Of a stretch of DNA of 64,000 nt, positions 2,184 to 25,900 are shown piece after piece. A program made the translations under genes and the position numbers. The DNA comes from Deuterostichococcus epilithicus (taxonomy: Eukaryota > Chlorophyta > Trebouxiophyceae > Prasiolales > Stichococcaceae): the NCBI GenBank assembly GCA_033439295.1, contig JAVTLE010000021.1:3472009-3536008 (forward strand), in the 5' to 3' direction. The number at the start of each line of letters is the position of its first letter. Within the stretch, counting starts at the first letter, position 1. The notes under the pieces are model-generated. The model was not told the DNA's origin. It saw only the letters and a list, made by a program, of their open reading frames with translations, and ran no database searches.

Positions 2184-5100
2184 ATGAGCAGCGACGCCAG
2201 TAGCACCAGCAACGAGAGCGATGACGAGTCTGGCGGCCGGCCCATGGTCGGCTTCCTTTTCGGCAACGTCGACAGCCGCATGCAGCTGCAGGACGATTAC
2301 CTCGACGAGGCGCGCAGCAAGATTGAAATGGCACAGCCAGCATGCCGCGCGCTTCGCCCAAGCATGCGCTTGATTCTGCACATGCTCATGTCTCAGCCAT
2401 GAATCTATGCAGATGCTCCTGAACTTCTGCCGGCGCATGCAACCAATATTGAGCTTGAGCCCAATGGCCATTGCAGGATGCGCGGGAGAGCCTTGCGGCG
2501 CTGGGCAGTGACCGCCTCGGCGGCGACAAGGAGGGACTCAGCCTGGAGGTGTGTACAGCTGCTTCTCAAATGCGCTGAAGGCTGCATCCGCAACCCTGTC
2601 TTTCAGGCATCAGCAGCCACTCAGCCCAGACCCAGCTGATGGAGGTTTGCGGCAGCCGTTTGCCGTATGTCATGAAGAGCACTCAGAACCTGCACAGGAC
2701 TTGCCACCGCAACCGATGCCTCCCTCTATTCCTGCCAGGGCATGGAGAAGGATGGCGGCGGCGGCGGAGGCAGCAATCCAGCTCCAGGCCGCAAGGCTGA
2801 CGGTGGTCGTACGGCGGAGCAGCAGAAGAAGGCGCCCGACGCGGCGGACTACAGCGAGGAAATGGAAATGATTGAGGACGCCTCCGAGCCGCCAGCGCCG
2901 CAGCCCGCGGCGGCGCTGGCAGCCCCCGCTGCACTCGGCTCCGCTGCGCTGCTTGGGTGAGGTTTCAAGGATGCGCCACTGGCTGTCGGTCTGGATTCAA
3001 GCAATGCGTTGTTTGTATGTATAGGGCTTCCTCGGATGGTGGCTGGGCTGTGGCTGCCGCCTGCATGCTGCTGAGCCTCCCCTGCTGTAGGCGTCTCCAG
3101 GCGGCAGGTGCTGGCGGGGGCGCCGCCGCTGCAGAGGACGACGACTACGACGAAGAGGACAACGCCGTACTGGCGATCGCCCCGCCTGCCGCCGCCGCCA
3201 CCGCCGCGCCGGCTGCCGTCACGCCGGCCGCCGCAGCGCCGGCCGTCGCTGCCTCTGGAGCCGGCGCCCCCCTTACGAGCGACCCTGCCGCCGTTGCGAT
3301 GCCTGCGTCAGCGCTGCTGGGGCGGGTTCCCTGATCCGCTTCATCTCTCGTTTCTCAACCGACACCGACATGCCTGCAAGCGGCTTGTTTGCAGACCATG
3401 TCAGCCGGCGGCACGGCCAGGTGCAATGAACCATGCTTTTGCCTGTTGCACAGCATCCGCCGGAAGCGATCGCCAGCAAGCGCCAAGCCCTCGTAACTAT
3501 GCAGGCGTCTGCAGGCGGCTGCAGCAGTGGGTGCTGCGGGCGGCGAGGACGACTACGACGAGGAGGACGATGACATCCTGGGTGTGGCCCCGCCTGCTGC
3601 CGTGGCCGCCGTCCCTGCTGCCGCCGCCGCCGCCGCCGTGAGGACGTTGCTGCAGCAGCCGGTGGNGCTGCCGGCGCCGCAGCCGCAGGCCGTGCAGCTG
3701 CCGCAGGCCCTGCAGCCGCCAGCGCAGCACCCGCAGCAGCCTGTGCTGCCGGCAGCGCAGCAGCCGGCGGCGCAGCTGCCAACGGTGCAGCGCGTCAGCG
3801 CTGCTGAGCTGGAGTCCCGCCAGCTGGCGCAGGCCAGAGCAGGTGGGCGACATCGCTGCGCTATTTATGCCTTCCCGTTAAAACTGTGCCTGGGTTTTCG
3901 TGGCTCTGCAGCGCCTCTGTCGGCAGTGCTGAAAATCCTGCCCGGTGTTCGTTGGGGACCGGTTTGGGGTTTGTATCAAGCAGTCCGGTGCCTGGTTCGC
4001 AGCCAATCCTCTACAGCCCTGCTTATTCGTGGAAAGGGTTTTGGGATATGATCTGTGGGCAGTGTCGTGTAGACTGACAATGCTGCAACCTAAACAAGCT
4101 GCACACTACGGCAGCGCGTGCCTTCATCGTCTGATCTGAACCACTGCAGGCAAGCGAGTGCCCGCAAGCTCTCTGGCGATGTCTGCAAGAGAACAATCCA
4201 AGGAGTTTGACACACGTTGTGGTGTGTGTCGTGAGCAGTGGGAGTCCAGCTGCCCGTGCTGGGCCGCGACGGCGCTGGTGCCATTCTGCGCTTCTCGGAC
4301 CTGTTTCCCACCGATGCCGTCCCCGACTCGAGGCCGCCGCCCCGTCGGCGCCGCGTGCGGTTCGCGCCTCCAGGTGGGGATGCAGGCCGTCCTCAGGTTG
4401 CAGATGTCAGTTGCGCAATGTGCCCCGAAGCCGTTGCCTTTGATCGAGTGCAAGTTGCGGTAATGTGTGTTTTGGCTTCCCTCGTGGACTTCAACGATCA
4501 GAAGTCTGGGCTCCAGCGAGAGGAAGGCTGGCATGAAGGAGCTCTCCTTGATGGAAGCCTCACCCCTCAGCAGCTGCGTGTGGTCGCCTTCGCTGCAGCG
4601 CCTCTGCCGGAAGCCATGGCAGCGGCAGACGGCGCCGTGGACGACGAGGCAGCCCTGGCGGACCCGGACACAGCGACGTGGGGCGCCGGCAGCTCTTCAG
4701 ACGAGGAGGGGGACCAGCAACAGCAGCAGCAGGGGCTTGAAGCAGAGCCGGCGGCCGCGGCGGCGGCGGCGCCTCAGCAGCGGCAGGAGCCAGCTGCCGC
4801 TGCGGATGGGGCCGAGCGCCCCCGCAGGCGCGCTTTGCCCTATTGTTGGCACGACTGGATCTTGCTGCCTGCTGCTAGGTGTTGTGGCCGTCTCCAGACT
4901 GGGCTCGATCACCAGGCCTTGCATGCTTCCTTGCGGCGCCGGATTGACCACGGCCTACCTGTCAATGACGGAACATCACTGGCAGCGGATGATGCCGCGG
5001 TGAACTTCGGCAGCTTGCGATGCCCTGCTGTCACGAACGACCTGCAGACCACTGCCTGTTAAAGTGTGCTGTGGCCCTCATCCTCAAACTGCTGCTGCAG

Positions 5101-8100
5101 CGTGGCTTCCATGGCCGGCGGCGAGCCCCTCGAGGGAACCGCGGCAGTAGCGGTTTCAGGCAGGGAGCCTGACGCCAACTTGCTATCGGACGATGACGAC
5201 TCTGCGCTGTCTCACACATGCTGCGAGGTGTGGCCTGACTTTGTGTTTCGTGTGTGGGGCTGGCTGTTGTGTGTGTGGGGGGGTGGCTTGTTGCGAGCAG
5301 CAGTTGCTTCGTGCACAACCGGATCAGGTAACGAAGGACGCTGAAGAGGTTGCGTACGTTTCAAGAGCAGGCAACTGCACCAGTGCTGGGCAATCTCACA
5401 GCTGCGGGCCGGCCCAGTCTCCAGCGATCTGCTCTGCGCCGCAGGGCGCGCACACAGCCGACTGGGAGCAGGCCATCGTGTGGGACTCTGACGCTGGGCA
5501 CGAGCCGCCGGGCGCTGCGCCCAAGGAGGAGTCCGAGGCCGACGACGCTTCCAATCCCGCTGCCGCCGCCAGCACCTCTGCCGGCACTGCGGCGGCAGCG
5601 CCGGGGCAGTCAGCCGGTGCCTGGCAGCTGCCGCGGGACGTGCGGTTGGAGCCGTTTGGGTCTTCGAGTGAGGCGTCCGTTTCAGCAGCAGGCTGCCGAA
5701 CCATGCACATGGTCTTGACGCAAGTGCATAACCTGTCTCATGGTGGCGTGTCATCCCTGATGCACTTGCAGCACCTGGCCTCCCAGCCCACAGGGTGAGA
5801 CTCGCCAAGACTCGCTGAACCTCATCCGCATGGCGCCGCCCTCCAGCACCCTGAGCGCGCCAAGCTGTGCGCTGCAGGGGGGCAGGCGGGCGCTGGCGCC
5901 ACCTCGCACGCGCAGATGCTGCGTCTGGAATCTCTTGGCGGCACGGCGGCGACTGCGGCGCCAGCCGACAAGGGTGGCGACGGCGACGCTGGAACACCGA
6001 AGCCGCCGCACCTTCCACTAGGCGCCCGCACACAGCAGGTGTGAGGACAAGGAAGCAATGCGCCCCTCCTGCTTGAAGCACTGCCACGCACTGCACAGCA
6101 GCTGGCGGCGGCAGCCCCTTGTGCCACAGCATGCCCCTTTGCAACAGCTGTCCATTCCGACGTGTTGCAGGCGGCATTGCCAGCATGCATGAGCTCGGAT
6201 GTGGGGTGTTGCCGCAGCCTTGACATGCCAGGAGTTGATGACGCAGATGCTGGACCGCGCTGCGGCGCAGCTGGCGGGCGGGGACTGGTTGGCGCACGTG
6301 CAGTGGGATACCAGCGTGCCGGCGCGGCCGCCGCGGCTGCTGCTCGACATGAACGACCCACACCTCACCTTCAGGTGCATTGACCTGTCCTGATCTTGCC
6401 ACCACTGCCCGCACATCCTCGATGCCTTTGCAGGTTTGGTCTCCCATGTCACAATTTGTTGTGCGTGCTTGTATGTGCCAGCCATGTGTCAGCGGGCGCA
6501 GCCCAGCGCCTGCAGTGCTGCAGCATGTCTCAGGGCCCTCTGGCACATCCTGCAGGGCCCTGCGCGGCACCGAGCTCCGCGACTGGGCGCACTCTGCGGC
6601 ATCTGTCGTGGCGCCTTTCAGCAAGGTGCGCTCTGGGTGGCGTCAAGTGCCGCACCGCCTCCAACTGGGCGATGTGGCATGCCTGGACATGCAACCGCCC
6701 TGCCACTGCCCATGCGGCAGCTTGGTGGCTGCTTCCCGTACGCACTTCCCAACAACAGCGCCGGAAACCCCGGAGAAAGCTTATGCGCTCCAGCTCGCGA
6801 CCCTGGACCACAGGTGAAGCTGGTGGCGGCGCCGCTGGTAGGTGAAGGCGACGCGGCGGTGCAGATGGCGCGCTGCAACGTGTCCAAGGACGCATTCTAC
6901 TCCGGGACGGTGCCACAACCCTCTTCTGCTGTCCAAGATCTTCATGCCAGCCAACCTGTAGCCCAGCAGCTGGTCCTTTCATGCCGTCTGTGAGGGACGG
7001 TGCCAGATTCCAAGTGACGACATGGTCGTCATTGGCAGCTTTGATGTCCTTCACCACAGCCTGCAATGACTGATCACGATTCCTTGACCCTGAACACTTC
7101 TCAACACCCTGTACACTCTCGTCAGTGGCGGTTGCTCTTCTGTAGACTTTCCTAGTGCCGCTGGAGGCTGTTCCTGGCCTCCATCTCACACACATACACC
7201 ACTCAGCAGCATTACCTTTCAGCTGCACATCGCTGCCAGAATGCTTCACAAAGCCTCATGTCACATCCACAAAGCCTCGTGTCACAGACACGCCGCTGGT
7301 TTACCCTGCCGCCAGGCCAAGAAGCGGGGGGACCGGGGCACGGCGGCGGTGGGCGCGCGGCACTCCCTGGCGGCGTCCTCGTTGGTGACGCTACCGACGC
7401 GGATGGATGCCGACACGCTGGCGCACCGGCCGCGCGGCCTGTGGGTGGCCCCAACCTCAGAGACCGCCCTTGGCGGCAGGGGCCGCCGCACAGGAGGTCC
7501 GCTTCTGGCCTCCCTGTAGGGGCTCAGGCTTGCAGTGTGTTATGCTGAGGCTGCTGGGTGCGGCCCCGAGCGCGGCGAAGATGGGGCATCTCCACGGATT
7601 CGTTGGCGTGTGGGCTGCCTGCTGCAGCCCGGCAGCCCTGGCAGTGGCCGACGCCGGCGCCGGCGCGTGCGGCGGCAGCGGCAGCGGCAGGCGACGTCCC
7701 TGCAGGATGACGTGCTGTCGTGCGGCTTAGAGCAGCAGTGGATCTGGCCCGAGGCTTGAGCTGCAGCTGATGTCTGTCACCTGGTAGGAGGCAGAGCCAG
7801 GTCTGCCAAAGCTGTGGTGGTCGCATGTGCGTCTTCACTGCAGACTTGCATGTGGCGCATGCAGGCGAGGGCGAGGCGTCTGTGCGGCTGCAGAGTCTGG
7901 TGTCCCCATCGTGCGGCGTGGCTCTGACGGGCGTGGCCCTGGCGGGTGTGCTGGTGGCGCAGCTGTGGGAGGCGGTGCGCTCCCAACATACCTGTCAAAT
8001 TTTGCCCAGACCCCAAGAAGCCAATGCGCATGCGCGATGTAGAGGCCCCTACCACGGGCCTGCAAGTCGGCTGTGGCGCGTGCTCTGTTCTCGCACCTGA

Positions 8101-11100
8101 ATGCTGTCCGCACAGCTGACCGCACGACCTTTGGCGAGCAGACGGCGAAACGGAAGGAATTCGCCGGCAGCGGCGCGGAACTGCCAGCGCTGATGCTGCC
8201 GCGCAAGCCGGCGGCAGTGCAGGCGGACCTGCAGAAGACTCTGGCTGGCAACGGTGTCGACGCCGCGGCCTCCAAGGTGACTTTGCCATGGTCGGCCTTG
8301 CTCTATAGCACCAAAAACAGATGAGAAAATTTGCTTGCTCAGAGGTTTCCTGCTCGTCTGATGCCCGCCTCTCAGCACTCCTACCATGCGTGTGGCGCTG
8401 CCGCCCGGTGGCGTGCCAACCGTCACTGAGTCAATGCGCCGGCACAACCGCCGGTGCACAGCGCCGGCGCCTGCTGGCCATGCTCGCAATTGTCGCCCAC
8501 ATGCCACCCGTGCACCTTACAACAGGGCCACGGCGGGCTTCTGCGCACCTGCCCGACAACCCTTCACCCGCACCTGTTGGAGCTCGCCCTCAAAAAGCTT
8601 CGGAAGCAAGGCGACTGCAGACGCTCTGATGCTCTTCTGACCGCAGGTGCAACTCTTCGTGCTGTACAGCCAGGTAGCGGCGCTGCGCACGCGGTTGGCG
8701 GCAGCGCTGCCGCCGCCCGACGGCAACGCGCCGACCCGCCCGCCTGGCGCTTTTGCGGTGCGCCACGGCGGGGTTTCCAGGGTTTGGGGTTCGGGATTCT
8801 CTCCAGTGCCATGCGCCCTCCCCTGCATTGGTTGCGCATGACAGCGGGCACGTTGGAGTGATGCCGCTATGCGACCATGAGGGCTTGAAGTCTGCATCCA
8901 AAAGGGGTCTTTCTGCACAGTGGCCACAGCCCCAGCATGCGCCATACGGCCGTGCAGAAGGGCCACTCACGAGCTGTTAGGCACCAGGTTGCGCTGTCGC
9001 TTGCAGAGTCACTTGCCTGCATGGCATGTTCGATGCCACATGCTGTTGCGCACAGCGGGTCGACACGCGCCCGACACTCAACTTGCTGTTTTCCGTTTTC
9101 CAATCTCGCAGAAACGAAAGGACCTTGCTCCCAACGACGGCCACATGCTGCTGCTGGAGTACTTTGAGGAACATCCGCCCCTGCTGGGTCGCCCAGGTGA
9201 ACTGTGAACTTTTTTTGCACCTTGAGCACACCTCCCTGTGCGCCCTCACCAAAAGCAACCGCGTCCGCTGCCTCAGCCGGTCGACAAGCTGGCACGGCAT
9301 GTCATCACAGCGGCAATGCCTACAGTCGCACAAGTTCACGGCCAAAGGCCCGCCTGTCTGCTGGCGGCCGCACCAACAGGATGGTAAGGCAAACGAAGGC
9401 CTGAGCGGAGAAACACCCTGCCCGGTCAGCAACAGCCTGGCTGCGCATGCCCCTCGTGACGGTAAACGGATTTGTCGATCAGCGAGCGCGTGCCGCCTCG
9501 GGCAGGTATGGGCGTGCGGCTGCAGACATTCTACCGCAAACGCACCCCCACCGATGCGGGGCACCAGGCGCTGCTGACGGGTGCGGCGCTCTCACGCTGT
9601 CTGTTGATCATATAGGGTTTGTTGTCTAGCATTGCCTCCGCATCCTCTCGCCACCTCAGACAAAGCCCTTCCCGCCGTCTTTGAACCCAAGTCGTCCGTG
9701 CGATTGCCATTCAGACTCGATTTTCATCCATTTCATCCTGGCGTTCAGGCAAGGAGCGCTGGCGTGTGGGCGCGGTCGTGCCGCTGCAGCCGGGCGACGA
9801 ATCCCCCTTCCTGGGCAACATCAAGCCGGGCGTGCCGCAGCTCGCTGTCGAGGTGTGCTCGGCGGTCGCCGCGCAGCAGCCCTCGAGGAAGCTCTCCGGA
9901 CATTTCCATGGTGCCTCACAGGCGGTCATTCAGGACGGCTGCGCTGGGGCTGTGCTGAGTGTTATGGAGGGCGGCAGCCGAGCGTCGTCAGCGGCATCTA
10001 CCGCAACTGTTCTTGGCGAAAATTTCCCGCCCCTGTCGGGCCCAGTTGACGACCGCCCCCATGCCGCCTGCCCCGCAGTCGCCCATGTTCAAGGCACCGG
10101 CATTCGGCTTCAGCGCTCCCGCTTCCGACTTCCTGCTGGTGCGCCACGCCAACGGCACCATGGCGGTTCGCGAGTTCCAGGGCGCCGTCGCCGTCGGACA
10201 GCAGGAGCCACACATCCGGGTGCCGGCGCCGCAGTCCAAGGAGAAGAGGCGAGCGAGCAAACCCGTCCCAGTCCGGCAGTGTCCCCGTGTGCCTGCTGCG
10301 CTGACATCAGAAGACCGGCACACGCAGGCGCTGGGAACCTCTGATACAGCAACGAGCTGAGCAGACAGCAGAGCTGACTTTGGTCGATCACGCATTGATC
10401 ATGCCGTGTTATTGGGCCTGGGTGCCGTGGGGGGCCAACTTCTGCTGGTGGGGGTCAGTTGACGGCTCCCTGGTGGCTGGCAGGGAGATCGAGGAGCGAC
10501 GGCTGGCGGCGCACGTGTGGCGGGAGCTGCGGAATCGCGCCGCCCGCCTGGAGAGGAAAGGCACCCCAGGGCCGGCCACTGTCGGTGCGTATACCTCCGC
10601 TGGCCTGCGCGACGGTCAGCATGGCGCAAGCTGCCGCAGAGCTTTCTGGTGTGCTCCCGCTGATGTGCTCCCAAGCCGTCGGCTCGAAGGAGACGCGGCG
10701 TGGCGGCAGCCTCCGGCCAGAGGGGCCACGCTGGAGAGCGCGCAAGCACAGTCGAGGTGCACCCTGGATGTGGGGCTGACATGTGTCGTCCTCCCCGCAG
10801 GTGTGCGGGAGCTGACGGAGTTGTTCCCGGGGCTGTCGGATTCGGTGGTCCGGGCACGCCTGAAGGACCGCTGCGGGTGCATCCCCTTCAGGGTGCGCTG
10901 CTGCACTCTTTCCCTAACACGTCTGGAGTTGCCCGAGTATGGCGCCTGTCCTGCTCCGTGCATCATGTCCTACGGGACCTGTTCCCCGGACCCTCGCTCA
11001 CCTGGCATTCGGGCGACATGCATCTGGTCACCTCAGCCGCTGGGGCATGCGGCCTGCTGCCGCAGCTCCCGGCGCGTCGTTGGCAAGCGCTGCCGCTCTC

Positions 11101-14100
11101 CGGCCAAGGCAGACTCCTGCGCGCGCCTGGCATGAGCTGTATCGATTCGGAGCTTTGCAGAGACATGGAGGAGAGACATGAGAGACGTGCCTGCGCAGGG
11201 TGACGAGTCGAAGTGGGTGCTGGCCGAGGGCGGCCGCACGCCCGCCGAGGCCGAGATGCGGAAGCTGGCGCCGCCCGACACCTGGTGCGACGTTATCATT
11301 GTTATGTTGTAATGATTTCGTTTGGAATTGAATATCAAAAACGTCGTCCTCCGAAACCTCTTCCGATCACTGCCGCAGCGTTGGTCGGTCCTGCGCTGGG
11401 CAGGCTGGAGCATGTGGAAGCAGGCAATGTTGTCTTGCCGGCAATGTGCTCTACGTGCAGCCAGTTCGCAGCGGCACAGTGTCGAGTCGCTGGCACAGCC
11501 ACGAGTCTGCCCAACACACCCCTCGCACACATGCCGCGCTACTTGTGCGCGCTACGGTTGCGCGAGGCAGCAAAGGATACAAACTGCCAGCGCCATGTCG
11601 CAGGTGCGCATTGGAGTCCATGCGGGCGGCCCTGGAGCGGTACCACAGCCAGGGGCTGTACGCAATTGAGCGCAGCAGCGCCGCCGCAATGGACCGCCTT
11701 GCCACCGCGTCGCAGCAGCTGCCTGAGGCCGACAGCCCGGTGAGAGCGGCCGCGCACTTCTCTGTAGGCGAACATACGCAGGGGATGATAGGCTCAGTCT
11801 GGCTGCTCCCCTCTCTTTGTCGCGAGCAGGGGGACAAGCTCCGACGCTGGGGGCTCTCTGCAAAGACAGATGTGCTCTGTCATCGCCTTGACTAGCTGTG
11901 CATCTGAGATGCGGAAAGGCCCTTCTGGACACAGCTCCATGAGCACGATCCGTATGTGAGCCATAGCATTTTTGAACGTCAGGCGGCGGCACTGGTGGAG
12001 CCGGCGGGACAGGCCACGACTGAGGGGTGTCACAACACTTTCTTCGCCGAGTGCCAAATGCTGTGACTGGGAGAGCACTCAAGCCGAAACCCTGAACCTC
12101 AAAACCCGCTGCGGACGCGCCGCAGGATGTCAAAGAGGCGGTGGCGCTGGTGGAGTCGGCTGGTCAGGGCGCCCCCTGGGCGGCGACCGACGCGTACGTG
12201 TCGACGGTGCGGGAGGGCCGCGGCAGCCTGGCGCTGTCCGGCGCCGGCGACCCCACGGGGCGCGGCGTCGGGTACTCCTTCACCCGCGACATCCGGCGGG
12301 TGCGTCTGTGCCGACTGGCCTGTGGCGCATGCGTCGGGTCGCCTGGCAGATGAGAGTTTTCAGGCCCTGCGGTGGCGGCTGCGCCGCACGCGCCGCCTGG
12401 CGTGTGGACGGCGGCTCGGGCAGCTGCGGTGCCCATCTGAAGCATGGCCGCCCCGAAGGGCAGGCCATGCAAGGCGCCCTGCCGTCTGCGCACCCTGTTG
12501 GTGGCTTCACACCCCGTAAAACCCGCCCCTGGTTTCCCAGCGGCAGCACAGGACACAGCGCCTGGGGGCATGCAGCGGCAGGAGGCGCTAACACAAGCAC
12601 CGGCGCCGACCCCATCTCCTGACAGCCGACTTTCGCTTTCGCATCGAGGACCTGCTGTTGCTGGTGCGCAGCACGCGGTGGAGCACCTGGGGCCCCGCAG
12701 CGGGGAGCGCGCCATCACGGGCACCGGCGCCGATCTGCGCCGCCTGTCCATGGACGACTCCCGGCGGCAGCTGCTGGCGATGGGCGTCGCCGAGGAGGAG
12801 ATCGCGCGTGTGTGACACCTCAATCTGTGTGTCATATCGAGGACCCGGGGGGGGTCATGCGGCCATGCAGATTCTTACTTGCTTAGCCATGGGCGGCGCC
12901 GAGGGGGGATCACACCTGCGGTGTTCGCCCTGCTCGTGTCAGGAGCTCGGTCATCAGCGTGGCCACAGCTGGCCGCGCTTGCTGTGTTGCCATCGTCAGC
13001 TGGACCTGCTGGTGAAAAAGATGGCGGCGCACCACCCTCCAGTCGAGGCGGCATGTCCCAGCGGCTGCGGCCAGCAGCACCACGGCTGTGCGAGGGGCAG
13101 GCCGCCACATAATTACTGGAACACCGCTCCCACGATGAAGCTTTAATAAGCTCAAATCACATCCATGTCTCGCTGCGCAGCGCTGACGCGGTGGAGCCGC
13201 ATCGCGCTGGTGCGCGAGCTGAGCAGCGCCGCCGCCGCCGACGGCGGCGCGGCGGCGTCCAAGTTCGGCACGCAGTTTGCGCGGCAGGCGCGTGAGTCGG
13301 CAGCGGAGCGGCAGGGCCGCTACCAGCACCAGTGCCAGGCTATCTTCGACCGCCAGGTATGCCCCTGCGGGGATGCACTCTGTGCTGTAGCTTGCACTGG
13401 TCCTGCGCCGTAGGGTGTGGCACCGGCTCGTGGCGGCTGCCTGAGCTCGTGCTATCTGGCCAGGCTGCGAATCGGCAGGCTTGGGGCTGCAGATCGTCCT
13501 CGCTCACAGAGCTTCGACTTTTGAGAAGTCAGGAGAAATATTGCTGGAATAAAATGCGTGTCGCAGGTGGCATTGCTGAACTGCCCGGACACGAAGGCTG
13601 TACCTGCGGAGGACGGCGGCGGGGGCGCAGCAGCGGCNGCTGGTGCCGCCGCCGCCGCCAACGGCGCCGCCCCGCATACTGCAGGCGCTGCCGTCGCAGC
13701 CGTCGCAGCCGTCGCCGCCGGCGCCGCCTCTGACGAAGACAGCTTCGGGGACCAGCTGGAAGGGCTGCTGGCCGGCAGTGACGACGACGCAGCGTCCAAG
13801 CCTGCCGCCAAGCCTGCTGTCAAGGCTGCCGCCAAGGCTGCCGCCAAGGCCACCGCCAAGCCTGCAAAGCCGAAGGTGGGCTGCTAGCCCGGTCTGTTGC
13901 AGGGGCACTGCTGAGTGATGGAGCTTCGAGCTTGCCGTCAGGCAGGCATTGCACACGGCACGCAGCGGTGCTGCAAGGCCAGCTGTGACATGCTGGCCTG
14001 GTGCGCAGCCAGCCCTCTCACATGCCTGTAAATGCGAAGCAGCTTCAGGAAAATCACAGCTCACTCGCTCATACGAGCGGAGCCAGGGAGCTGCAAACTT

Positions 14101-17100
14101 CCTCAGTCGCTTCCTCCCTGAGATGTCCTGAGTGCACGAGTTTCTCGCCGTGCAACCAGCCCAAAGGCAGGAGGAGGGCAGCGGTAGTGGTGCTGAACAT
14201 GGAAGCACAGCATGACGAGAAGCAGCTGTTCACAGCAACAAACACGACCCCTCTGAATGCATGGCTGCTTCCTCAATCAGGTCAAGAAGCTCAAAAAGAC
14301 GCCGGCGACGGCGCCGCTGGACGTGGAGGCTGACGCAGAGGAGGAGGCGGAACTGGCTCGCATGCGCGCCGCGGGCTTCACCGGCGGCGGCGAGGCTGCA
14401 GGTGAACCGCGCAGCAGGAACTGCGACACTGCTGCCGGACACATCCGTGCAGCTCCTCATTGGCGGAAGCACGGAGTCGCCTGCAGGCTTCACCTGCGGC
14501 GGCAAGGCCATGATGTGCAGCAATTGGACTGGACACAATCCTAGAGCCGAAGTCCTCCGGACTGGAGGTACCTAAGGGTGCCTCGCTGTGTTCTAGCTGC
14601 GGCAAGGCTGCAGGATGACGCGAGCCGCACAGCGCGGTCTGCCGGGCTGTGACCAGGCTGCAAGGCTCCGGAGGCTCACTTGATGCAGCCCTCCGCAGCT
14701 GGCTCAAAGCTGTCCCTTCCCACAGACGAGAGCGGCGGCGGGAAGGCGGCTGGAAGGAAGTCGCACCTGGAGGCAGCGCCTGGCGCGCGGCGCATCCGTC
14801 GCACCATCAAGTGGACCGCCGCAGACGGCTCGGAGGCCACCAGGTTTGGATCTTGCAGTGCTGCCCGGCAAGCAGTGCCTCTGAACCACACATGCAGTGC
14901 CAGTCATGGTGCCTTGCCTCTCAGCCGCTGCAGTCCCCTGTTGAGAGCTCGGGTGGCACACTTAGCGTGGTACGTCGCAAGCCAATGCACGACCCGAGAA
15001 TGATGCACATGCTATCGAAACTCAAAACGTGTGCAGTTGACTCCTGGCTCTCTGGTCAGCTTGGCTCTTTGGTCAGCTTATCCGTACGAGACATCAGCGA
15101 GGCTGCCGCCACAGCCTTCCCCATGCTTGCTCTAAAGCTGGCTGAAGTTTCAGCCCGCTGACAGGGAGATCATCGTCGCCAAACGAGAGGCGGTTGCGGC
15201 GCTGCATGCGCTGTGCGCCGCCGGCAAAGACATCGGCGGCCCCTGGGGCTTTGGCACCCGCCACATCAGGGGTGCGCTGGAAAAACAATAGGAAAGGGCC
15301 TGCGCCAGCAGGATACGGCTACCCCCCGAGTGACTGCCCCCCGGATCACAGCTATGATGCCGTGAGGCTGCTGCTGCGTGCATGTACGCAAATGATCTAC
15401 AAAACCCCCACACCCTGGGGCCCTGGGTGCTTGGTCCGCTGATGCGGCCAATGATGGCGGGAAGGCATTCGGCATGACCCCGACACCGGGCATTTTCTAC
15501 CGCGGTTCTGCTGCACATGCCTGCCGCACCTCGCAGTGCTGGCGCAGCCGTCCGGCAAGCACGCTGCACAAAGCGTCCTCACTTCGTCACTGCCGCGTTT
15601 CTGCTGCTGCAGGGAGGCCGTCGCGGAGGGGCCACCACCGCAAGAAGGTGAAGCTGCCCCTGCGTCCGCGGCTGAGGCGCTGTCGGTGCACGTCGATGTG
15701 GTTGTGATGGTTGTGATGGTGTGCTCCTGGTCGCATGAGTGAGAATCCAGGGCCGGTGGACCCACCTGCAGCCGCATCAGCATGTCCCCTGTGGTTGTGT
15801 CAAAGTGTGTCACCTTGCGGCATCTCAGAAAGGAGCTCCGCAACAAAACGCTGCAAGTCACCTCAAGGTGTCCATGTGGCTGCAGCTCGCGGCGGCTTCC
15901 AGGGCGCCCGCCAAGCGCAAGCAGAAGGAAATTATCGAGGTCTGCAGACACCAGCCTGTGCTCGGCGCCTGATTTGTACGCGTGTTTGCAGCACACAGAC
16001 TCTGTGGCTGCTTTTGAAAAGTGCCAGACCAGCTGCGCCGACTCATCATCCGGTGTCTATGCCACAACTTTGCTGCCTTGAACCTCTGCTGATTAATTGC
16101 ACTGTTGGCCCGCCCTGCAGTACGAGACGGACACGGAGGAGGAGGACGAAAGCCCCGAGCTGGCGGCGCTGTCGTCGCCGCGAGCCACCAAAGTGGGTAC
16201 TGCTTGGAGTGCATTTTTCAAAATCAAAAAGCAGACTGGGCTTCCCCCTTCGGTCTGGCCAAGTGCATGAGCGCGCAGCAAGTCCTGGAGCGGGCGTCTG
16301 GAGCAGGCTTTGCGTGCGGCGCAGCGCCGTCTGCGCCGTGCCAAATGCTCAGTGGCTGGCTTTCCAGCGCGGGCGATGCCATTGCCTGCATCGTGGCCAG
16401 CCTGGCCGCCAGTTTCCAGTCGTGCGCTGTCGACGCGCGACTTCATCCACCTCCGCTGCCAAGTCAGAGCTGCAATTCGTCTGATGCACAGCCACCAGCC
16501 GATCAATGCCACGTGCCTAGCCCGAGCGTGCTCTGCCTCTGCCAGAGTGTCAGGAACAGCGGTCACTTGTGTCCAGCCCGGTCGATGGGTCTGCGCCTTG
16601 AAAGCTTGAAAATCTGCTTCGTGTGGTCTGTTTCAATGTCTCTTGACACAAGTTGAACCAAGATACAGACCGGACTGTATGTCCTCTGCCAATGCAGAGC
16701 GGGCGCGTGAGCAAGCGCAAGCGCATAGTGGAGGACACCGAAGACGACGCGTCCGAGCCGGGCGAGGAGGTGGCCCCCGCGTCGCCGGGCGGCACCATTC
16801 AGCGCTCCTCATCGGGCCGCACGCTGCAGAAGGTGCGGTCTCCGTGACTCCGCACCTGCACCCGAGACGCGGTGCCGATCATGAGTAGAAGGAATCGGCA
16901 CTGGGACTGGCGAGCAGGTGGCGGGCCGGCCTGCTGGAACGGTGTTGGGGCTGCCCTGGCCGGTAGCGGGCGAGGACGATCTGCACGACAAGCGCACGGG
17001 ACGAGCAGCGCTGGCTTCGCCGGCGCAGCTCAAGCCTCGACGTGCTTGTGTCTGTGCAGGCGCCGAGCTCGTCGAGGGCTGCGCCAACGGGGCGGCGGGC

Positions 17101-18834
17101 CCTGAACGCGGTGCTGCGCCGCATCGTCACGCTGCTGCGCAAGCCGACGCACCCCAATGCGGCCGAGTTCCGCATCTTCCAGGCACGACGAGTCCCCCCT
17201 CGTGACACGTTGGCAGACGGTCGAGGAAGTTGATTTGAGGAAGGGGTCGCCCAATGCTGGCCCCGCCGCCGCAAGCAGCAGCCGCCAGCCGGCAGCGCAG
17301 CACCAGCCCCGTTGTCGTGCCGTCTTGGCTGCCAGCGCCTGCAGGTCTGCAGGTTTCAAGACATGTCAGTTGACAGGTGGATTACAAACGACGGGCCTTC
17401 TGACACGTGTTCAAGCTCCAGCGACTGTGGAGGCGGCCCATCAGTCGGCTGGTGCCTTTCAACGGTCTGCTGAATTTCGCGCCGTCCCGCAGAGTTCCAT
17501 CGACACCCTCACCCTCATGCTGCCCGGGGGCCGATGACGCCGGCCGAGCGCAGCCAGCGCCGACTTTCGTCTCTTTGGTTCGACACCCAAACCCTGACCA
17601 TAAACCCTGCACAGGAGCCAGTGGACAAGGCGGTTGCGCCAGACTACAACCAGTTCGTGCCGGAGGAACAGGAAATGTATCTTGCGGCCATGGAGCGGGA
17701 GGCGCGTGCGGGGCGCTACAACGGGCGGGGCGAGATGCGGGCCCATGCGGCACTGATCGCCGCCAACGCCGCCACCTACAACAGCGCCGGCGCCTGCGCC
17801 TTTGCACGTGCGTTGGGGGAGCTGCTGGGAGTGCCGCGGCGGCGGGCCACGCTGGCGGCAGGGCTGGCGGCTTGCATCGCACGTGCTGGCCCGCTGTGGC
17901 TGTGCCAGCACTCAGATGCAGCGGCAGCACACGAGCATGCTCTGACATCGGCGCAGCAGCGGCGGTGTTGGAGAGGCTGACGAGTGTGTGCAACTCGCCA
18001 GCGCCCGCGCTTTCATGTATTGTGTCTGATCTTGTAAATTTTCTAGCAAATTTTTGTGGTTTCCCTTGCAGCGGCGCTTGGCTGGGCGAAAGTGCTGCTG
18101 GTGACTGCTGCGGCGTGAGGCCGCTGGCGGCCGCTGACCCCTGTGCGACCTGTCCCAACCCTGACTCTGCAATCATGTTCCTTCCCCGCAGCGGCGGTGG
18201 GCTGGGCGCAGGCGCTGCTAGCGGCGTGCGATGAGGAGCTGCAGCGGCTGGAGCCTGAGCTGGACGCCGCAGAGGCGCGGCTGCAGGAGGAGGAAGGCAT
18301 TGGTGAGACCTCTCGTTGCGATTTGAGCAGCAACCTTGCGACAAGCCTTCAAGAGTGAAGCATCATTAGCAAACTTGGCACGAACCTTCAAGAGTGAAGC
18401 ACCAACATGAAGCGGGCATTTGTGAGCTGCTGCGGCGTCCCTCGGAGCTGTCCAGCACCCAGTGGCTTGCTGATATCTAGGTGAACGCCACGCTGGAGCC
18501 GTCCCACAGGCGACCTGCAGGAGCCACCCTGACTTGTTTCCCAACATTTTCCGCACCACATTTGGCAAGGTGTGAACAGTGAAGCGCCTGTGCGGCTGTT
18601 CTGACCAAGGCGCCCTGCGACGCAGTGCCGGTGCCGCTGGAGGGCATTGCTGTCGCAGAGACGGCGGGCTTCGATCAGTGGGTGGAGTGCGACCGGTGCA
18701 AGAAGTGGCGGCGGCTAAGCGAGGCAGCGCACTCGGCCACGGTGCACGGCGACAACCCCTGGTTCTGCGAGGCCAACCCCGACCCTGCGTTCGCTAGCTG
18801 CGACGTGCCGCAGGAGGAGTCGACGGAGGCCTGA
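2184..18834 (+). CDS. TAF1: TFIID subunit TAF1 with C-terminal bromodomain and CW zinc finger
   Basis: Largest subunit of general transcription factor TFIID, acting at core promoters in the nucleus. Exon 1 (2184-2309) has the TAF1 opening GFLFGNVDSRMQLQDDYLDE; exon 2 (2477-2548) continues DARESLAALG. Acidic exons follow to about 3843. Later TAF1 blocks, in order: VLGRDGAGAILRFSDLF (about 4255), DWEQAIVWD (5460), LLLDMNDPHLTF (6335), NAPTRPPGAFAVR (8725), DGHMLLLEYFEEHPPLL (9140), GMGVRLQTFYRKRTPTD (9510), ESPFLGNIKPG (9800), SDFLLVRHANGTMAVREF (10125), ELFPGLSDSVVRARL (10820), GDPTGRGVGYSFTRD (12245), DLRRLSMDDSRRQLLAMG (12730) and LTRWSRIALVRELSS (13180). One bromodomain lies at about 17085-18302 (PDYNQFV; NAATYN with the acetyl-lysine Asn). 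The last exon, 18626-18834, is a CW finger. I did not find the zinc knuckle seen in plant and animal TAF1. Donors at 2310, 3322 and 17183 appear to be GC. Exons between the named blocks are not individually fixed. Confidence 0.93.
3091..3843 (+). repeat. Tandem in-frame duplication of an acidic TAF1 exon
   Basis: Exons 3091-3321 and 3505 to about 3840 both start right after AG with a near-identical run (GCGTCT, then CAGGCGGC). Both encode RLQAA followed by an acidic core (DDDYDEEDNAVLAIAPPAA versus EDDYDEEDDDILGVAPPAA) and an Ala/Pro-rich tail. Both are phase 2 at the 5' side, because 'ALLGG' of the preceding exon is completed by the same G, so both can be included in one mRNA. The first copy must leave through a GC donor (3322-3323) to keep phase 2. 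An N base at 3666 lies in the second copy. Confidence 0.75.
18072..18120 (+). repeat. Decayed copy of the bromodomain-end exon start, with its acceptor site
   Basis: Within the intron before exon 18192-18302 there is a second CAG followed by a run matching the start of that exon at about three of four positions over 32 bases. The real exon reads AVGWAQALLAACDEE; the copy reads ALGWAKVLL and soon meets a stop, so it cannot replace the exon. The copy includes the pyrimidine-rich acceptor region (18055-18071). Confidence 0.7.
18626..18834 (+). other. CW-type zinc finger, terminal exon of TAF1
   Basis: The exon encodes WVECDRCKKWRRL, then NPWFCEANPD and ASCDV, ending with TGA. Four zinc-ligand cysteines (WVEC, DRC, WFC, ASC) and the invariant tryptophans of a CW domain are present. 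In plants and animals CW domains bind methylated histone H3 lysine 4. The exon follows an AG acceptor and starts with two bases (TG) that complete the codon left open by the G ending exon 18302, giving GIVPVPLEG in one frame. This phase match is the main evidence that it belongs to TAF1 and is not a separate small gene. Confidence 0.82.
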
Positions 18835-19909
18835 GACGCTCCCTCATGGATGAAACGGCCCGCAGCGGCGGCTCAGGCTGGAGCACCAATCCTGCACTGC
18901 AGGCTTGGTCGTTGGCCGCCGCATCCTCCTTGGGACACGCCAGTTCTTTCACATGATTGTGCTTATGACACCTAGTTTTCCTGAGGTTTTCCTGAACCCG
19001 GCGTGGGTTGACTAGGTTAGATAGATAGAGAGAGAAGGAGGCCGCAGCCTGCAGCTGGTGTGGCCAACGGCATCCACAGGACAGAGCTTCACCCGCCTCT
19101 ACATCTATAGCGGATGCTGATAATGGATGTTTCAAACTCGGAAGTCTTTTGTCCAAGCATACCTATGCAGTAACAGACATATTTTGCTCGGCGGCAGGCG
19201 CTCTGCCGCGAGTGCACAATTTGTCGGGTTGAAGTTCTACAAGCCGCATTTCCTGGACAGTCTGGCCAACAGTTCGAAAGTCGGATAACTTGCCAAAACG
19301 CCTTGCACACTTCGAAACGGCACGCCATCTGGCGTTGTGTCTTGGAATCAATCCCCGTACAGATCCACATCGAGATACAATGGCCGCCGCAATACAAAAC
19401 CGCAACATACCTACACAAGCAATCGAAAGCTGAGCCCGCATCAATGGCCATGGAGGCGCAGCAGAGCTCTCCAGTAACAACCCGCACTAAAGCGCATGAA
19501 GCAGGCCAGCCGCCCCGATACGATGTACACTGATCCCGCTGGATCCCGCAGGTTGCTGCTGGTCACCCCTGAATCAGGACGCGTACGCCTCTGCCGCGCG
19601 GTGTGGTAAGTGACAAGACTTTCCCATAGCTACTTTCAGGCATCCTCCCCAGGACAAAGGAAGCGGCAGTTCCGCGCGATGTCTGCATATGCCGGCGCCA
19701 GACCTGGAGGCACACGACACGGCAGGGCATCGGCGTCTGGCTTCGAGATTTTACCTCAAAGCAAAGCAGTCCTGCAATGTAAGCTAGGCCGAAGGCAGCT
19801 GCCCCCCACGAATGTGATCGGCTGACATGCAATCTCCCTGACAGGCAGCGCAGCAAGCAGCCAGTGGGGAAGCTCGGCAACGTGGCAAGCGTGCGTGGCA
19901 TCCACGCAA
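18835..19909. other. Convergent intergenic region TAF1 / USP
   Basis: About 1.1 kb between two stop codons, so only 3' ends are expected. It contains a short GATA/GAGA stretch (about 19017-19034). No protein family, tRNA or strong repeat was recognised, and no clear TGTAA polyadenylation signal was seen. Confidence 0.5.
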
Positions 19910-22900
19910 TCACGACTGGACGGCAAACACACAGCGACGCCGCTGAACCTCACCAGGTTGCGTCGAAACGAGCTGCTCCAGCTCCGTGGTCCGCTGGATC
20001 CAGGGCTCCGCGGAGTACGTCGCAATGTGCTCCTTCACCTGTGCGGCACAGCAGACGGTGAGTGCAGCGTGCATTGGCAGAAGCTAGCGGAAACGTCTGC
20101 ATCAGGCTCAGCGCACCGCGGGGGTGAGCTCCACCTCTGCACCGGCACTTTTTCGAACAGGGCGAGGCGTGTCGTGCAGCTCATCTTCGCGGTGTCAGAC
20201 ATGCAGGTTTCGGAATTGGGGGTGAAGACCCCGGTACTTTGCGCCAGGAGGCGATGCCGCCACTGGCAGGCTGATGCGGGTGCCCGAGAGCCGAGCCTGG
20301 AGCGTCCCCGACTTGCCTTGGCTGCGGTGTCTGGTCCCGAGCTGGCCATGCGGCACACCAGCTGCAGCAGCGGCGCCACCTCCAGCGCAGAACCCGCCAC
20401 CGCCAGCTCCACCAGGCCCTGCGCTGTGCGGCCGCTGCGGGCGGGGCCGCAGAGAGAGTTTCAGGCTTGCTGCATACGTGGTCGACTTGGGCCTACATAT
20501 GTGCGCTGCGCCCATGGCCTGGGGCCCAGTGAGTGGCGCCCTCCGTGAGGCGGCTGCCGGGTGCGTCCATCTGCGCTGCACCAGTTCCCCAGGAGCACCA
20601 CGATAGAGGTCGCCCACAGCCGCGGACAAGTTGCCAACAGCTCGACACGCAGGAGCACAGAGCAAGATGCACATTGCAGAGGTCTGCGGCCCAGGGCGCC
20701 GCCAGAACACCAGGACGAAGGGAAGGCAGCAGCCTGGGGGCATTCATAGCGGCCTGCTTGGGTGCCGGGGCGGGCAGGGGGCGCACATGACGGGGCGAGG
20801 AAGTAGCACTGCGCCGACGCGGTGCGGCAGCAGTGTGTCCGGTATCACGATGAGCTGAAAGGCGCCCTCCTGCAGGGTGGGGTGGACAGGCATGGGTGGC
20901 AGAAGGGGGAGTTGTCGGCCGAGTTGAGCCACTCGGTCACCGTCCTCATGGACGGGCATGGGCATGGGTGCCCAGGTCTGCTGTGTGATCCAGAGCGCGG
21001 CAGCAGGCCCAGCACGACCAGGTTGAACCACATCGTGCACAACCCTGCAACAGACAGCGCCGGCGCCTTTGGCGCGCCTTGCACACGCGAACCCTGAGAA
21101 CGCTGCACACACCAGAGCACGGGCGCTGACGACTCTGCAGAACACCGGGCAGCGCACAGCAGCGGTCGTACGTGCATGTTTATGTTGAGAACCCTATGCT
21201 GGAGGGGAAAACAGGGATGAAAAAGCGCACCACCACGCTGGGAAGAAGGTCTGCAGACACATTTGTGAGCGTCCGCAGCAGAGCCCCCAGCACCTTGGCC
21301 GAGGTGCCGTTGGCCTCCCAGCACATCGCGCAGCCCAGGCCTGGGCGCAGCAGCACCGGGGGTTTCGAGTCCGGGGGTCGATGCGTGCATGCCGCCTGGT
21401 CTGCGGGGCCGGAGAGTCAGCTTGCACGCTGGCGGCCGGCCGCCAGCAGGTTTAGGGCAGGAGGGAGGGGGGCGGAGGTGCTGCCGCAGGTTGTGAACAG
21501 CGTTCATTTTGCGAGGTACGACCCCAACCAGACGCCCGGAGGCGACACAGGACGGCAATGCAGCCCGGCGCACACAACTTCAGGGCGCCCCATTCAGGCG
21601 TCAGCCCGGGAGGGCGCGGCACCCCGCAGCGTGCGGGGTGTGAGGGTTCAGGGCTCCGGGGCAGCAACAGCGCAGGAGGGGCGCCGCTCACGGAGCAGAG
21701 TCTGGCTGTTCAGGCCCCGCGGCGAGGCGACCATGGGGACGATGTGGCTGACGGCATCGGGCGGCAGCGGGCCCCACTGGCTGACCGGCACCGGCGGCGG
21801 CGCCCCCAGCTCCCTGTCGATGGCGTACGGGTTGGGCGGGCTGCCGGCCTCTCCGAGCAGCATGTCCGAGCTGCGTGGCGCAGTGGAGGGTTTAGGGCCA
21901 TCCTAAAACTCAATTTGATGGACTGGAGGGTTTGAGGGACTCGTCCGTTGTGCCGGGAGGAGCCGGGTTTGGGCTCCTGCCGTCTGAATGCTTCAGGGCA
22001 GCAGAGCTGCAGCCTCAGGGGCGGCTGGCGAGGGTGCCTGGCCGCATCCTGCCTGGCAGGGCAGGCTGCCATCGGGGATGCGAGGGTGCAGGCCCGCTCA
22101 CCTGCACAGCAGGCTGGACAGCAGGCGTGCGGACGCCCAGGCGGCGGAGGGGTAGGCGCGATCCGCGTAGGCGAGCCAGGGCGCCACGTGACGCACGACC
22201 CCCATCTCCAGCAGCGCCCGCCGCGCGGCGCGGCTCGCTCTGCGGCGCACGGCGACAGTCGGATGGATGCCACAGCGGTAAAATCCTAAACTGCTGCGGC
22301 ACGGTGCGCGGCCGCACAGCGAGGCAGCGGGTTTGTGAGGAGGGCATCCGGTGCGGGTACCGCACTGCAGATAGGCGCGCGGGTGGAGCGGGGCATCGCG
22401 CGCAGGAGCTTGGCGGGGGCTTCGGATGATCTTCCTCGAAAGGGCAGGGCTGCCCGACGAGTCGGTCGGGAGTGCACAGGCAGTTTGACGGGCAAGCATG
22501 GCCGGTGGGAGCANGTCCGCCCCCTCCCCCACCCCCGGAGGGGGAGGGTGTGGGGGCGCAGCGGCGCACGAGGGGACAAGACAGGGAGGAGCGCGCCAGG
22601 ACAGGGGAAGAGACACGAAGGACCATGCATCGGTGGGATGCAAGACAGGATACACGGAACCCTAAACCCTACAGAGGCGCACATGGCCAGCTCGGAGAGG
22701 ACGTCCACGACGTGCAGCAGCAGGACGCCAGGCGTGCCGTCAGTGCCGGGTGCAGGGCCCCTCAGCAGCGGCTCCAGCGTCGCCGCCAGGCCGCCCACCA
22801 TGTCGTCGCCGCGTCGTGCGTCCTGCAGCCGGGACGGCAGCGTGTTCAGGCGTGCTCGGGTCAGGGTCTGGGGCCCGGCAAGCCCGCCCTGCGCTGGAGG

Positions 22901-25900
22901 TGATGCAGGCTGCAGCAGCAAGCTCGCATGGCGGGACACTCGTCTCACTGCGGGGCGGGACACGGCGCAGCGGTGTTGGGAGCGGCCCGCTGTGCTTGCA
23001 AGGGACACGACTCCTGAGCCTCCGCTCAGCGCAGGAGGCAGCAGTGCTCGTGCAGGCTGACAGACTGCTCGGCGCATCGAGCGATGCTGCTGCGAGGTCC
23101 CGGAGGGGGGCAAGCCAGGGGCTGACGACCATTCCAAGGGCATGCCAAGGCGGGCCAGAGGCTGAGATCGGCGGGGGAGCCGCAGCGCACCTCTGCGTCT
23201 TGGCCAACCTCAGTGGCGACCCGCACCGCGTGCTGCAGCAGGCCGCGCAGGAAGTCGAACACGTCACCCGGCACGTTGTCCAGGAACAGCGCCATTGCCG
23301 GGCCCTGCCGCAGGACGCGACAGGAGCGGCGGTGAGGCGAGCAGGGTTCAGGGCCGCGGTCTGGCAGCAGCTATGCTACTTTGACACTGCTGGGCCCTGC
23401 CCAAGGGTGCGCAACGGGCGCTCAACCCTGGTGAACCAGCGGGTGTGATGTGACTTACGGTGCAAGGACGCCCTGTGCAGATTGGATGGCATGAAACTGC
23501 CGCTGGCAAAGGTCAGCAGATGCAGAGGCCAGCAGCTACTGATTGAGGCTTCACCTTGACCGCCAGGTCGTGGAGGAACACGCAGGCGGTGGCAGGGGAG
23601 GCATCCATCAGCGCCGTCAGCGCCGCGCCCCACTCCTGCATGTCGTCCTGTAGACCCGCGTGCGCATGCAGGTACAGCTGCGGTGGCAGAGGGTGGAGGA
23701 TTTGGAGTTGACCTTGTGTCACGCGCAAATCTTGTGCTTGCAGTTGCGTAGGTGCCGTCACTTACAGATGATGCAGACCTAGGGGCACCACCGGGGCATC
23801 AGAGGCTCAGATCAGAGAACAGGGTGTGCACGCGGCAGTCGTGGCTTACCCGTGATGGATCAGGAAGCAGCCGCGCAAGCTCTGCCGCGCGGCACACAAA
23901 TCCGACACGATAAGCACAGGCGTCTCAATTGGACCTGTTAAGGCGCAGCCCGCAGCTCACCTTGAACATGAAGGAGGTGGCGAGCTCCATGACGACTCGC
24001 GCCGCGGCGTCAAAGTCCTCACCCCGCCGCGACGACGCCAGCGGCCGGTCTGCTGCGGCTGCCACGTCCGTGGCGCCACCCGCAGTGTCTGCTGCTGCGT
24101 CCGGCCGCTGCGGCNGCNGCGGCGCGGCCGCCGCGGCGCCGGCAGTGCGCCGCATCTTGGAGCTGCCCGCCTGGGTGCGTGCCTCCACCAGCTGCCGCAT
24201 GAACCTGCGGTCGGGAGAGCATAGCTGTCAGCCCAGCAGGGTTTTGTGCAGTTGAAGTCTGCGAAGTCTCAGGCTGACAGGACGCTGAACCGCTGACGCT
24301 GGGCTGCCACAAAGCCCTCGCCGCAACGACGCGACAGTGAACGCTCAGTTCCCAACAACAGTGCGATATGGGTTACTGCTAATCGTCACCCCCTACCCGC
24401 AGGAGCCTCTCGGCAGCAGCGCACCTGAAGTAGGGCTTGGTCAGCGTGTGCTTCTCCTGCAGTACTTGCAGGTTGTCCCGCATGACCGAATTGTACACGG
24501 ACGCCGGCATGCCGTAGGGTCGCTCCAGCTGCCCAGCGCCACTGTAGGTGGAGGCGTCTGTTGCTGCTGCTGCAATTGCCTCCGCCGCTGAGCCGGCCTC
24601 AGGGGGCCCGCAGACATCTGCGTGCGTGGCAGGGATATAACCTGTCATGCATCTGCACTCCAAAAAGTGCACACAAGAGAACGCAAGGCTGGAGTTGGAC
24701 TTCCGAGTGCACCAGGCGACAGCCTTTGCAGACTGACTGAATGGCGGCTTGAGCCGCGCACACGGCCGACTGACACCGCTTTGAGGCACGCTGAGCATTG
24801 GCACAGATAGGCCTGGCAGTAAAACTCAAAGACAAGGCCCACAACCGAAGAGGCAATGCCGCTGCGAACACTACTCTGCATGGTTGGTACGAACACACCT
24901 GCTGCGTCCTCGTCTGCTATCATAGGCTGCGGGCTGGCGGATGCCGCTGCCGGTGGTCGCACCGGTGGTGGTGACACCAACATCTCATCCGCATCAGGCT
25001 CCGCTGCCGCCTGGGCCTGGTCTGGCTGCGGCGGCACTGGCGGCACTGCCGCATCGGCCGCTGGAGGCGATGAGGCTGCCGCTGCTGCCGCTGGAGCGTC
25101 TGTCGTCCCGTCTGGCGGCGGCGCCGAATCGACGGCGGGATCATCGCTGGCACGCTCGTAGAACAGCATGTAGGCGCTGTTGGGGCGATCGTACTCCTGC
25201 AGGCCACGCATAGTGTCACACAGTTTTGTGCATCGCAGCAGACGCCGTTGATGGACTAAATTTGCAGCGCACTGTGGGCATCACCTCTGATGAGAAGTGC
25301 CAAAAGCATGCTAAGGAGTTGTTCACGAGGCTGTGGTTGGATGCCCCACAATAGTCTCGCGAACAGCCAAGTGCACATCAAAGCTGATGCCATGGTCGGA
25401 GCAGAGCACAGGAACGCCCCTGCAGGCCAGAGTGGCGAGTTCATCCACGCCTATGCCGCATGGCTGCACCTGCTGCTTGACGCCGGCCAAGGTGTTGTCG
25501 GGCGTGTACTTGCCGCCAAAGCAGTCGCGCTCCAGGCTGCCAATGTCCCACGGCTCCACCTGGTTGTCGTCGAAGCGGTACCACTGGCCTGCTGCGCCGC
25601 CGCCACCGCCGCGCTCCTGCACACAGGAGGCAGGACGCAGGATGCATGAGTTCTGGAGCCAGCCAGCAAAGGCCGACATGCTCTGTTATGCTGCATGTGC
25701 TGGCTGGCATCCGCACACAGCCTAACCTCCAACCCGTCAGCGTTTTGCTGTCCGGGTTGCGGCAGGTCTGTATGGCCGAGGCCACCTGCAGTGCAGAGTA
25801 CGCAATGGCTACATCAAGTGCATGTTGCCAGCTGCTGTGCCGGTCCACTGCATGTTCTGGAATCACAAAGTACACCTGGATGTAGGAGTAGTAGTGGCCG

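What the first reader, a model, noticed from the sequence alone, without database searches (positions are those of the whole stretch)
17085..18834. TAF1 fused to a CW histone-reader domain
The exon after the TAF1 bromodomain encodes a complete CW finger (WVECDRCKKWRRL..WFC..C). The bromodomain exon ends one base into a codon (ATT G, then GT) and the CW exon supplies exactly the two missing bases. Human and Arabidopsis TAF1, as I know them, have no CW domain. In animals H3K4me3 is read inside TFIID by the PHD finger of TAF3. A CW domain, whose known role is H3K4-methyl binding, on TAF1 itself could do the same job here with another fold on another subunit, next to the acetyl-lysine reader. That functional idea is inference.
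Basis: partly seen in the sequence, partly recalled or inferred. Interest (0 to 1): 0.82.

Follow-up and report, generated by a model that had tools for sequence, protein, structure and literature searches.

The report
TAF1 carrying a CW histone-reader finger
In this photosynthetic, probably green-algal, genome the gene for TAF1, the largest subunit of the general transcription factor TFIID, appears to end in an extra exon for a CW zinc finger, a fold known elsewhere to bind methylated histone H3, so this TFIID may read two histone marks through one subunit.

Summary
The gene is TAF1: DUF3591 E 3.4e-64, TBP-binding E 1.1e-11 on its first two exons, human TAF1 core E 3.2e-55, bromodomain closest to human TAF1. 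Both DUF3591 hits of the genome lie in it. The next exon, 18626-18834, encodes a full CW finger (PF07496 E 6e-15; nearest solved structure MORC3). It joins the bromodomain exon in frame, shows the gene's codon-position signature and has no in-frame ATG, so it most likely is TAF1's last exon. Zinc ligands and both pocket tryptophans are present; H3K4-methyl binding is likely but untested. New here: no TAF1 zinc knuckle was found; the one Bromo_TP hit looks like TAF8 rather than TAF3, with no PHD detected near it; a competing exon at 18510-18569 would end TAF1 before the CW. Not shown: a transcript, a second species with the fusion (no eukaryote collection was searchable), binding. I file it as a new variant of a known kind: TAF1 with an added reader domain.

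The parts
2184..2309 (+). TAF1 first coding exon (MSSDASSTSNESDDESGGRPMVGFLFGNVD...), TBP-binding domain; its donor would be GC (gcgcgc), tentative
   Evidence: model; PF09247 E 1.1e-11 on exons 2184-2309 plus 2477-2548
2477..2548 (+). TAF1 exon, rest of the TBP-binding domain
9112..13356 (+). TAF1 core (DUF3591), 11 exons of the model: 9112-9196, 9506-9580, 9749-9852, 10079-10248, 10484-10584, 10801-10892, 11199-11284, 11604-11739, 12126-12299, 12672-12807, 13181-13356
   Evidence: PF12157 E 3.4e-64; human TAF1 6mzm chain A E 3.2e-55
13567..16832 (+). TAF1 linker, 8 exons of the model: 13567-13875, 14281-14401, 14726-14843, 15165-15271, 15613-15647, 15886-15939, 16121-16192, 16698-16832; where other TAF1s carry a CCHC zinc knuckle, none found here
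17060..17182 (+). bromodomain exon 1 (donor GC, gcacga; a GT 9 bases further on would also keep the frame, by eye)
17615..17807 (+). bromodomain exon 2 (EPVDKAVAPDYNQFV...NAATYNSAG), keeps PDY and YN
18192..18302 (+). bromodomain exon 3 (LLAACDEELQRLEPELDAAEARLQEEEGI), last helix; ends one base into a codon
   Evidence: aligned to human TAF1 [20 protein letters not shown]
18303..18625 (+). last intron, 323 bases, GT-AG; contains a competing exon-like stretch 18510-18569
18626..18834 (+). last exon: CW zinc finger (18676-18819) and stop TGA 18832-18834
   Evidence: PF07496 E 6e-15 (place); MORC3 CW E 4.2e-11
18061..18146 (+). decayed copy of the start of exon 18192-18302 inside intron 17808-18191; joined from 17807 it would meet a TGA (by eye)
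   Evidence: local alignment score 59 against a maximum of 44 in 200 shuffles
19778..19782 (+). TGTAA, possible polyadenylation signal (recalled for green algae); first one after the CW exon, none between 18034 and 19777
   Evidence: which scanned 17000-20500 and found two, at 18033 and 19778; weak, about one is expected by chance from base composition (my estimate)

Best explanation
A TAF1 gene acquired a CW zinc finger as a last exon directly behind its bromodomain. The protein works as an ordinary TAF1 (TBP binding, DUF3591 core) whose C-terminus is a two-reader module: the bromodomain takes acetyl-lysine and the CW finger takes the H3 tail at K4, most likely in a methylated state, so that TFIID is held on promoter nucleosomes bearing both marks. 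Shown here: the domains, their order, the reading frame. Inferred: that the mRNA joins them, that the finger folds, binds H3K4me and does so in TFIID.
For: TAF1 identity. CW profile match. All four Cys (CDRC, WFC, ASC), both pocket Trp (QWVEC, KKWRR) and the core Trp (WFC) line up with MORC3. In MORC3 (W410, W419) and ASHH2 (W865, W874) these Trp form the binding pocket (passages of PMC9043364). MORC4 CW, with such a Trp pair, binds H3K4me3 at about 0.1 uM, whereas MORC2, lacking one cage Trp, does not recognise histones (passages of PMC7596504). Coding signature, frame and absence of an in-frame ATG. A separate start within the last intron feeding the CW frame: one ATG (18407) with two GT donors, scoring -4.4 and -2.3. 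The genome encodes H3 tails with K4 (5 of 6 matches identical over all 31 residues asked). In animals TAF3 in TFIID binds H3K4me3, and histone acetylation enhances TFIID binding (passages of PMC7294231).
Against: No RNA evidence. The last intron's donor scores 4.9 (other 21 introns 4.3 to 9.5) and its acceptor 6.4, below all 21 others (6.5 to 12.4; those were scored with themselves in the matrix, this one was not). Better-scoring sites lie in the same intron: acceptor 18510 (7.6), donors 18569 (9.8) and 18480 (7.0). At the place of MORC3 Glu453, which closes the pocket, this protein has Ser, with Glu nearby (my count). No relative was found in four scans, but the collections are of viruses, bacteria and archaea. 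The structure prediction was poor (mean pLDDT 53.5, single sequence).
Confidence: 0.6

Rival explanations
1. The CW finger is in TAF1 but only in some mRNAs: splicing chooses between the CW exon and a stop-bearing exon at 18510-18569 (ending ...GIGDLQEPP), so the cell makes TAF1 with and without the reader.
For: Exon 18510-18569 has better-scoring sites (acceptor 7.6, donor 9.8) than the CW junction and carries a stop in the incoming frame; a decayed exon copy at 18061-18146 could act likewise.
Against: Site scores come from a matrix of 21 introns of my own model; no RNA data; conservation of the short exon could not be tested.
Confidence: 0.3
2. The CW finger on TAF1 serves DNA or nucleosome binding in place of the missing TAF1 zinc knuckle rather than reading H3K4 methylation.
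For: The TAF1 zinc knuckle binds promoter DNA and is called strictly conserved (passages of PMC5854669) but was not found here; MORC4 CW also binds DNA (passages of PMC7596504).
Against: Both methyl-lysine pocket Trp are kept; MORC3 CW, the nearest in sequence, is said not to bind DNA; a knuckle split by an intron could have been missed.
Confidence: 0.15
3. The CW exon belongs to a separate small gene or is a stray exon not joined to TAF1.
For: No transcript seen; the junction's splice sites are not the best in the intron.
Against: No ATG in the CW frame, poor donors for the one start in the intron that could feed it, phase fits TAF1, same strand, codon signature.
Confidence: 0.1
4. The fusion is an ordinary, old feature of green-algal TAF1, already visible in protein databases though not discussed in papers.
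For: Could not be tested: no collection of eukaryotic genomes was available; Arabidopsis and human are distant comparisons.
Against: No direct evidence against. No title or abstract start in the listings reports such a fusion (3 of 3 papers listed; 20 of 22; 5 of 5; 15 of 218; 3 of 3; 7 of 7; 2 of 2).
Confidence: 0.4

Closest known systems
TAF1 (TFIID subunit 1; human TAF1, Arabidopsis TAF1/HAF1)
   Same: TBP-binding N-terminus, DUF3591 core, C-terminal bromodomain; one bromodomain, as in Arabidopsis (passages of PMC4949998)
   Different: CW finger added behind the bromodomain; no zinc knuckle found; no ubiquitin-domain hit in the 973-residue model (exons between 2549 and 9111 were not modelled)
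CW fingers of MORC3/MORC4
   Same: MORC3 chains are the closest solved relatives: NPDP-F--C-VP-E motif, Trp pair and Cys set
   Different: on an ATPase there, on TAF1 here; four extra residues before WFC; Ser where MORC3 has Glu453 (my count)
ASHH2/SDG8 CW-SET methyltransferase
   Same: CW finger with the same Trp pocket; this genome has a CW exon with weak AWS and SET hits (both under cut-off) close behind it on C11
   Different: a separate gene; its CW exon shares 12 of 28 aligned residues with the TAF1 CW
TAF3 PHD finger of animal TFIID
   Same: a reader of H3K4me3 on a TFIID subunit, helped by acetylation (passages of PMC7294231)
   Different: other fold, other subunit; not detected in this genome

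Membership tests
TAF1 | DUF3591 core | tested here: met
   E 3.4e-64, 217.6 bits against cut-off 25; human TAF1 E 3.2e-55
TAF1 | N-terminal TBP-binding domain | tested here: met
   PF09247 E 1.1e-11, 45.2 bits against cut-off 25
TAF1 | C-terminal bromodomain of TAF1 type (not present in all TAF1s) | tested here: met
   PF00439 E 2.6e-9; 6 of 7 solved sequences matched are TAF1, best whole-sequence E 1.3e-11, best single domain 1e-5
TAF1 | CCHC zinc knuckle between core and bromodomain (widely conserved; I do not take it as defining) | tested here: inconclusive
   no Cx2Cx4Hx6C in the three + frames of 1-20000; three looser pattern hits (5725, 8502, 13374), none convincing, the last one in an intron of the model; 3 weak PF15288 hits, none over cut-off and none on C18; half-motif scan gave no convincing pair; a split knuckle cannot be excluded
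TAF1 | assembly into TFIID | not testable with these tools
   needs protein work
CW zinc finger (PF07496) | profile match over the curated cut-off | tested here: met
   55.4 bits against 27.5
CW zinc finger (PF07496) | four zinc Cys and conserved Trp | tested here: met
   alignments
H3K4-methyl-binding CW | two pocket Trp | tested here: met
   aligned with the MORC3 pair W410 and W419
H3K4-methyl-binding CW | C-terminal residue closing the pocket (ZCWPW1 Trp303, ZCWPW2 Phe78, MORC3 Glu453) | tested here: inconclusive
   Ser at the counted place, Glu at +5, +6 and +9 from the last Cys (my count)
H3K4-methyl-binding CW | binding to H3K4me peptides | not testable with these tools
   bench assay
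TAF3-PHD type H3K4 reading in TFIID | histone-fold subunit with PHD | tested here: inconclusive
   1 Bromo_TP hit of 2 candidates, TAF8-like; no PHD near it; exon-wise search only

The most novel reading that the evidence does not exclude
In this lineage TFIID moved H3K4-methyl reading from the TAF3 PHD to a CW finger on TAF1, beside the bromodomain, while TAF1 gave up its DNA-binding zinc knuckle: a swap of promoter DNA contact for histone-mark contact inside the general transcription machinery, possibly switched by splicing.
Probability: 0.3. Interest if true: 0.8.

Novelty: new variant of a known kind. Interest (0 to 1): 0.62.

Why it matters
Whether H3K4 methylation instructs transcription through TFIID is an old question. 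A TFIID whose H3K4 reader sits on another subunit with another fold would be an independent evolutionary instance of the link, and a simple, separable last exon makes it testable by deletion.

Tried and rejected
Relatives: the CW exon and one TAF1 core exon (12126-12299) were searched in viral contigs and genome contigs; no relatives, as expected of collections without eukaryotes. Structure prediction of the CW exon alone was poor, so no fold search was run. Considered and rejected: chance match of the CW profile (E 6e-15); a mis-joined copy of another CW gene of this genome (the two other matches at protein level are 40 and 43 per cent identical, E 5.6e-5 and 9e-4; of seven CW peptides aligned one by one the closest shares 21 of 45 residues); a second TAF1 gene without CW (both DUF3591 hits, of 3 candidates, are in this gene).

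Model building: my first exon table lost the frame at the fifth exon; I moved three donors (to 9580, 10248, 11284) and left out the first two exons. Boundaries in the core were thus chosen to keep frame and homology, so 'all in phase' is partly by construction. The region 2549-9111 was not modelled. Two of the 22 introns of the 23-exon chain are GC-AG.

Papers: the TFIID evolution review of Antonova et al. 2019 is not held; I know it from its title in a reference list. Passages only were read of PMC8638923, PMC8559703, PMC7596504, PMC9043364, PMC5854669, PMC4949998 and PMC7294231; every other paper was seen as a listing. Of the 11 listings, two papers were opened.
Full report
What was claimed.

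The gene. A hand-built 23-exon chain from 9112 to 18834 reads open in one frame. Its first part matches DUF3591 (E 3.4e-64) and human TAF1 over query residues 3-445 (E 3.2e-55). The 5' end at 2184 encodes a TBP-binding domain (E 1.1e-11). The bromodomain is encoded by three exons. Its best solved relatives are human TAF1 (6 of 7 sequences matched; whole-sequence E 1.3e-11). The alignment to the first human bromodomain covers residues 60-178 of the 187 given (domain E 1e-5) and that to the second covers 84-185 (domain E 0.049), so it runs well into the third exon, 18192-18302. DUF3591 was found nowhere else in the genome (2 hits of 3 candidates, both here).

The CW exon. 18626-18834 encodes 68 residues plus two bases of the junction codon, with a full CW finger nearest to MORC3 (E 4.2e-11). 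It is one of eight CW hits in the genome, six of them over the cut-off; one of the others is followed by weak AWS and SET hits, as in ASHH2. It is not a copy of them. Its G+C by codon position follows the rest of the gene, while the intron is flat. The reading frame has no ATG, and the one ATG in the intron that could feed it has only very poor donors (GT donors only were tried). So it must be spliced to something upstream on the same strand, and TAF1 is what lies there in the right phase.

Doubts about the join. The sites of the last intron are not the strongest at hand. Its acceptor (6.4) scores below the other 21 and its donor (4.9) near the low end. An acceptor at 18510 and donors at 18569 and 18480 score higher, and an exon from 18510 would end TAF1 with GDLQEPP and no CW. 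Intron 17808-18191 holds a decayed copy of the following exon. Both could give TAF1 forms without the CW finger. The intron length, 323 bases, is typical (22 introns of 168 to 505 bases, middle value 321). TGTAA, which I recall as the green-algal polyadenylation signal, is absent between 18034 and 19777; this fits a transcript running through the CW exon but is weak.

What it does. Zinc ligands and both pocket Trp are present. MORC3 and MORC4 CW domains bind H3K4me3, and MORC2, which lacks one cage Trp, does not recognise histones (passages of PMC7596504). The residue that closes the pocket differs among CW fingers (passages of PMC9043364) and is not clear here. I therefore expect H3K4 binding with a preference for methylated forms, of uncertain selectivity. 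Next to a bromodomain this would give two-mark reading. In animals H3K4me3 is read in TFIID by TAF3, and acetylation strengthens TFIID binding; yeast TAF3 has no PHD (passages of PMC7294231).

Two further observations. [quoted passage not shown] Second, the only Bromo_TP hit is TAF8-like, with no PHD motif in the 10 kb around it and none of the 26 PHD hits near it. Both are absences in an exon-wise search and are stated with that caution.

Known or new. I found no paper describing a TAF1 with a CW finger in the searches; these were judged from listings (one search listed 20 of 22 papers, only 15 of 218) and from passages of two papers. Protein databases of other algae could not be searched, so how widespread the fusion is remains open. 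The genome has 39 chlorophyll a/b-binding-family hits and so is that of a photosynthetic eukaryote; 'green alga' is inferred and 'trebouxiophyte' untested.

Verdict. Observation confirmed; fusion at DNA level well supported; transcript and function inferred; a new variant of a known kind.

Noticed in passing
window 18061-18146: Decayed tandem copy of the start of TAF1 exon 18192-18302, with its own acceptor-like CAG, inside the preceding intron; it could act as a stop-bearing alternative exon.
   Followed up: partly
window 18510-18569: Exon-like stretch with high-scoring acceptor and donor inside the last TAF1 intron; in the TAF1 frame it carries a stop after GDLQEPP.
   Followed up: partly
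window 13567-17182: The TAF1 CCHC zinc knuckle, described as strictly conserved, was not found between core and bromodomain; a stretch RRGHHRKK in exon 15613-15647 lacks the Cys.
   Followed up: partly
window 17182, 10248, 2309: Three TAF1 introns of my model begin with GC instead of GT.
   Followed up: no
window 25441-26034, - strand: Reading frame with a weak match to a ubiquitin carboxyl-terminal hydrolase (PF00443 E 8.6e-5, just under the cut-off), on the strand opposite to TAF1 (the other 7 of 8 frames scanned gave nothing).
   Followed up: no
L046 4775-6697: CW exon with weak AWS and SET hits behind it, probably an ASHH2/SDG8-like methyltransferase gene.
   Followed up: partly
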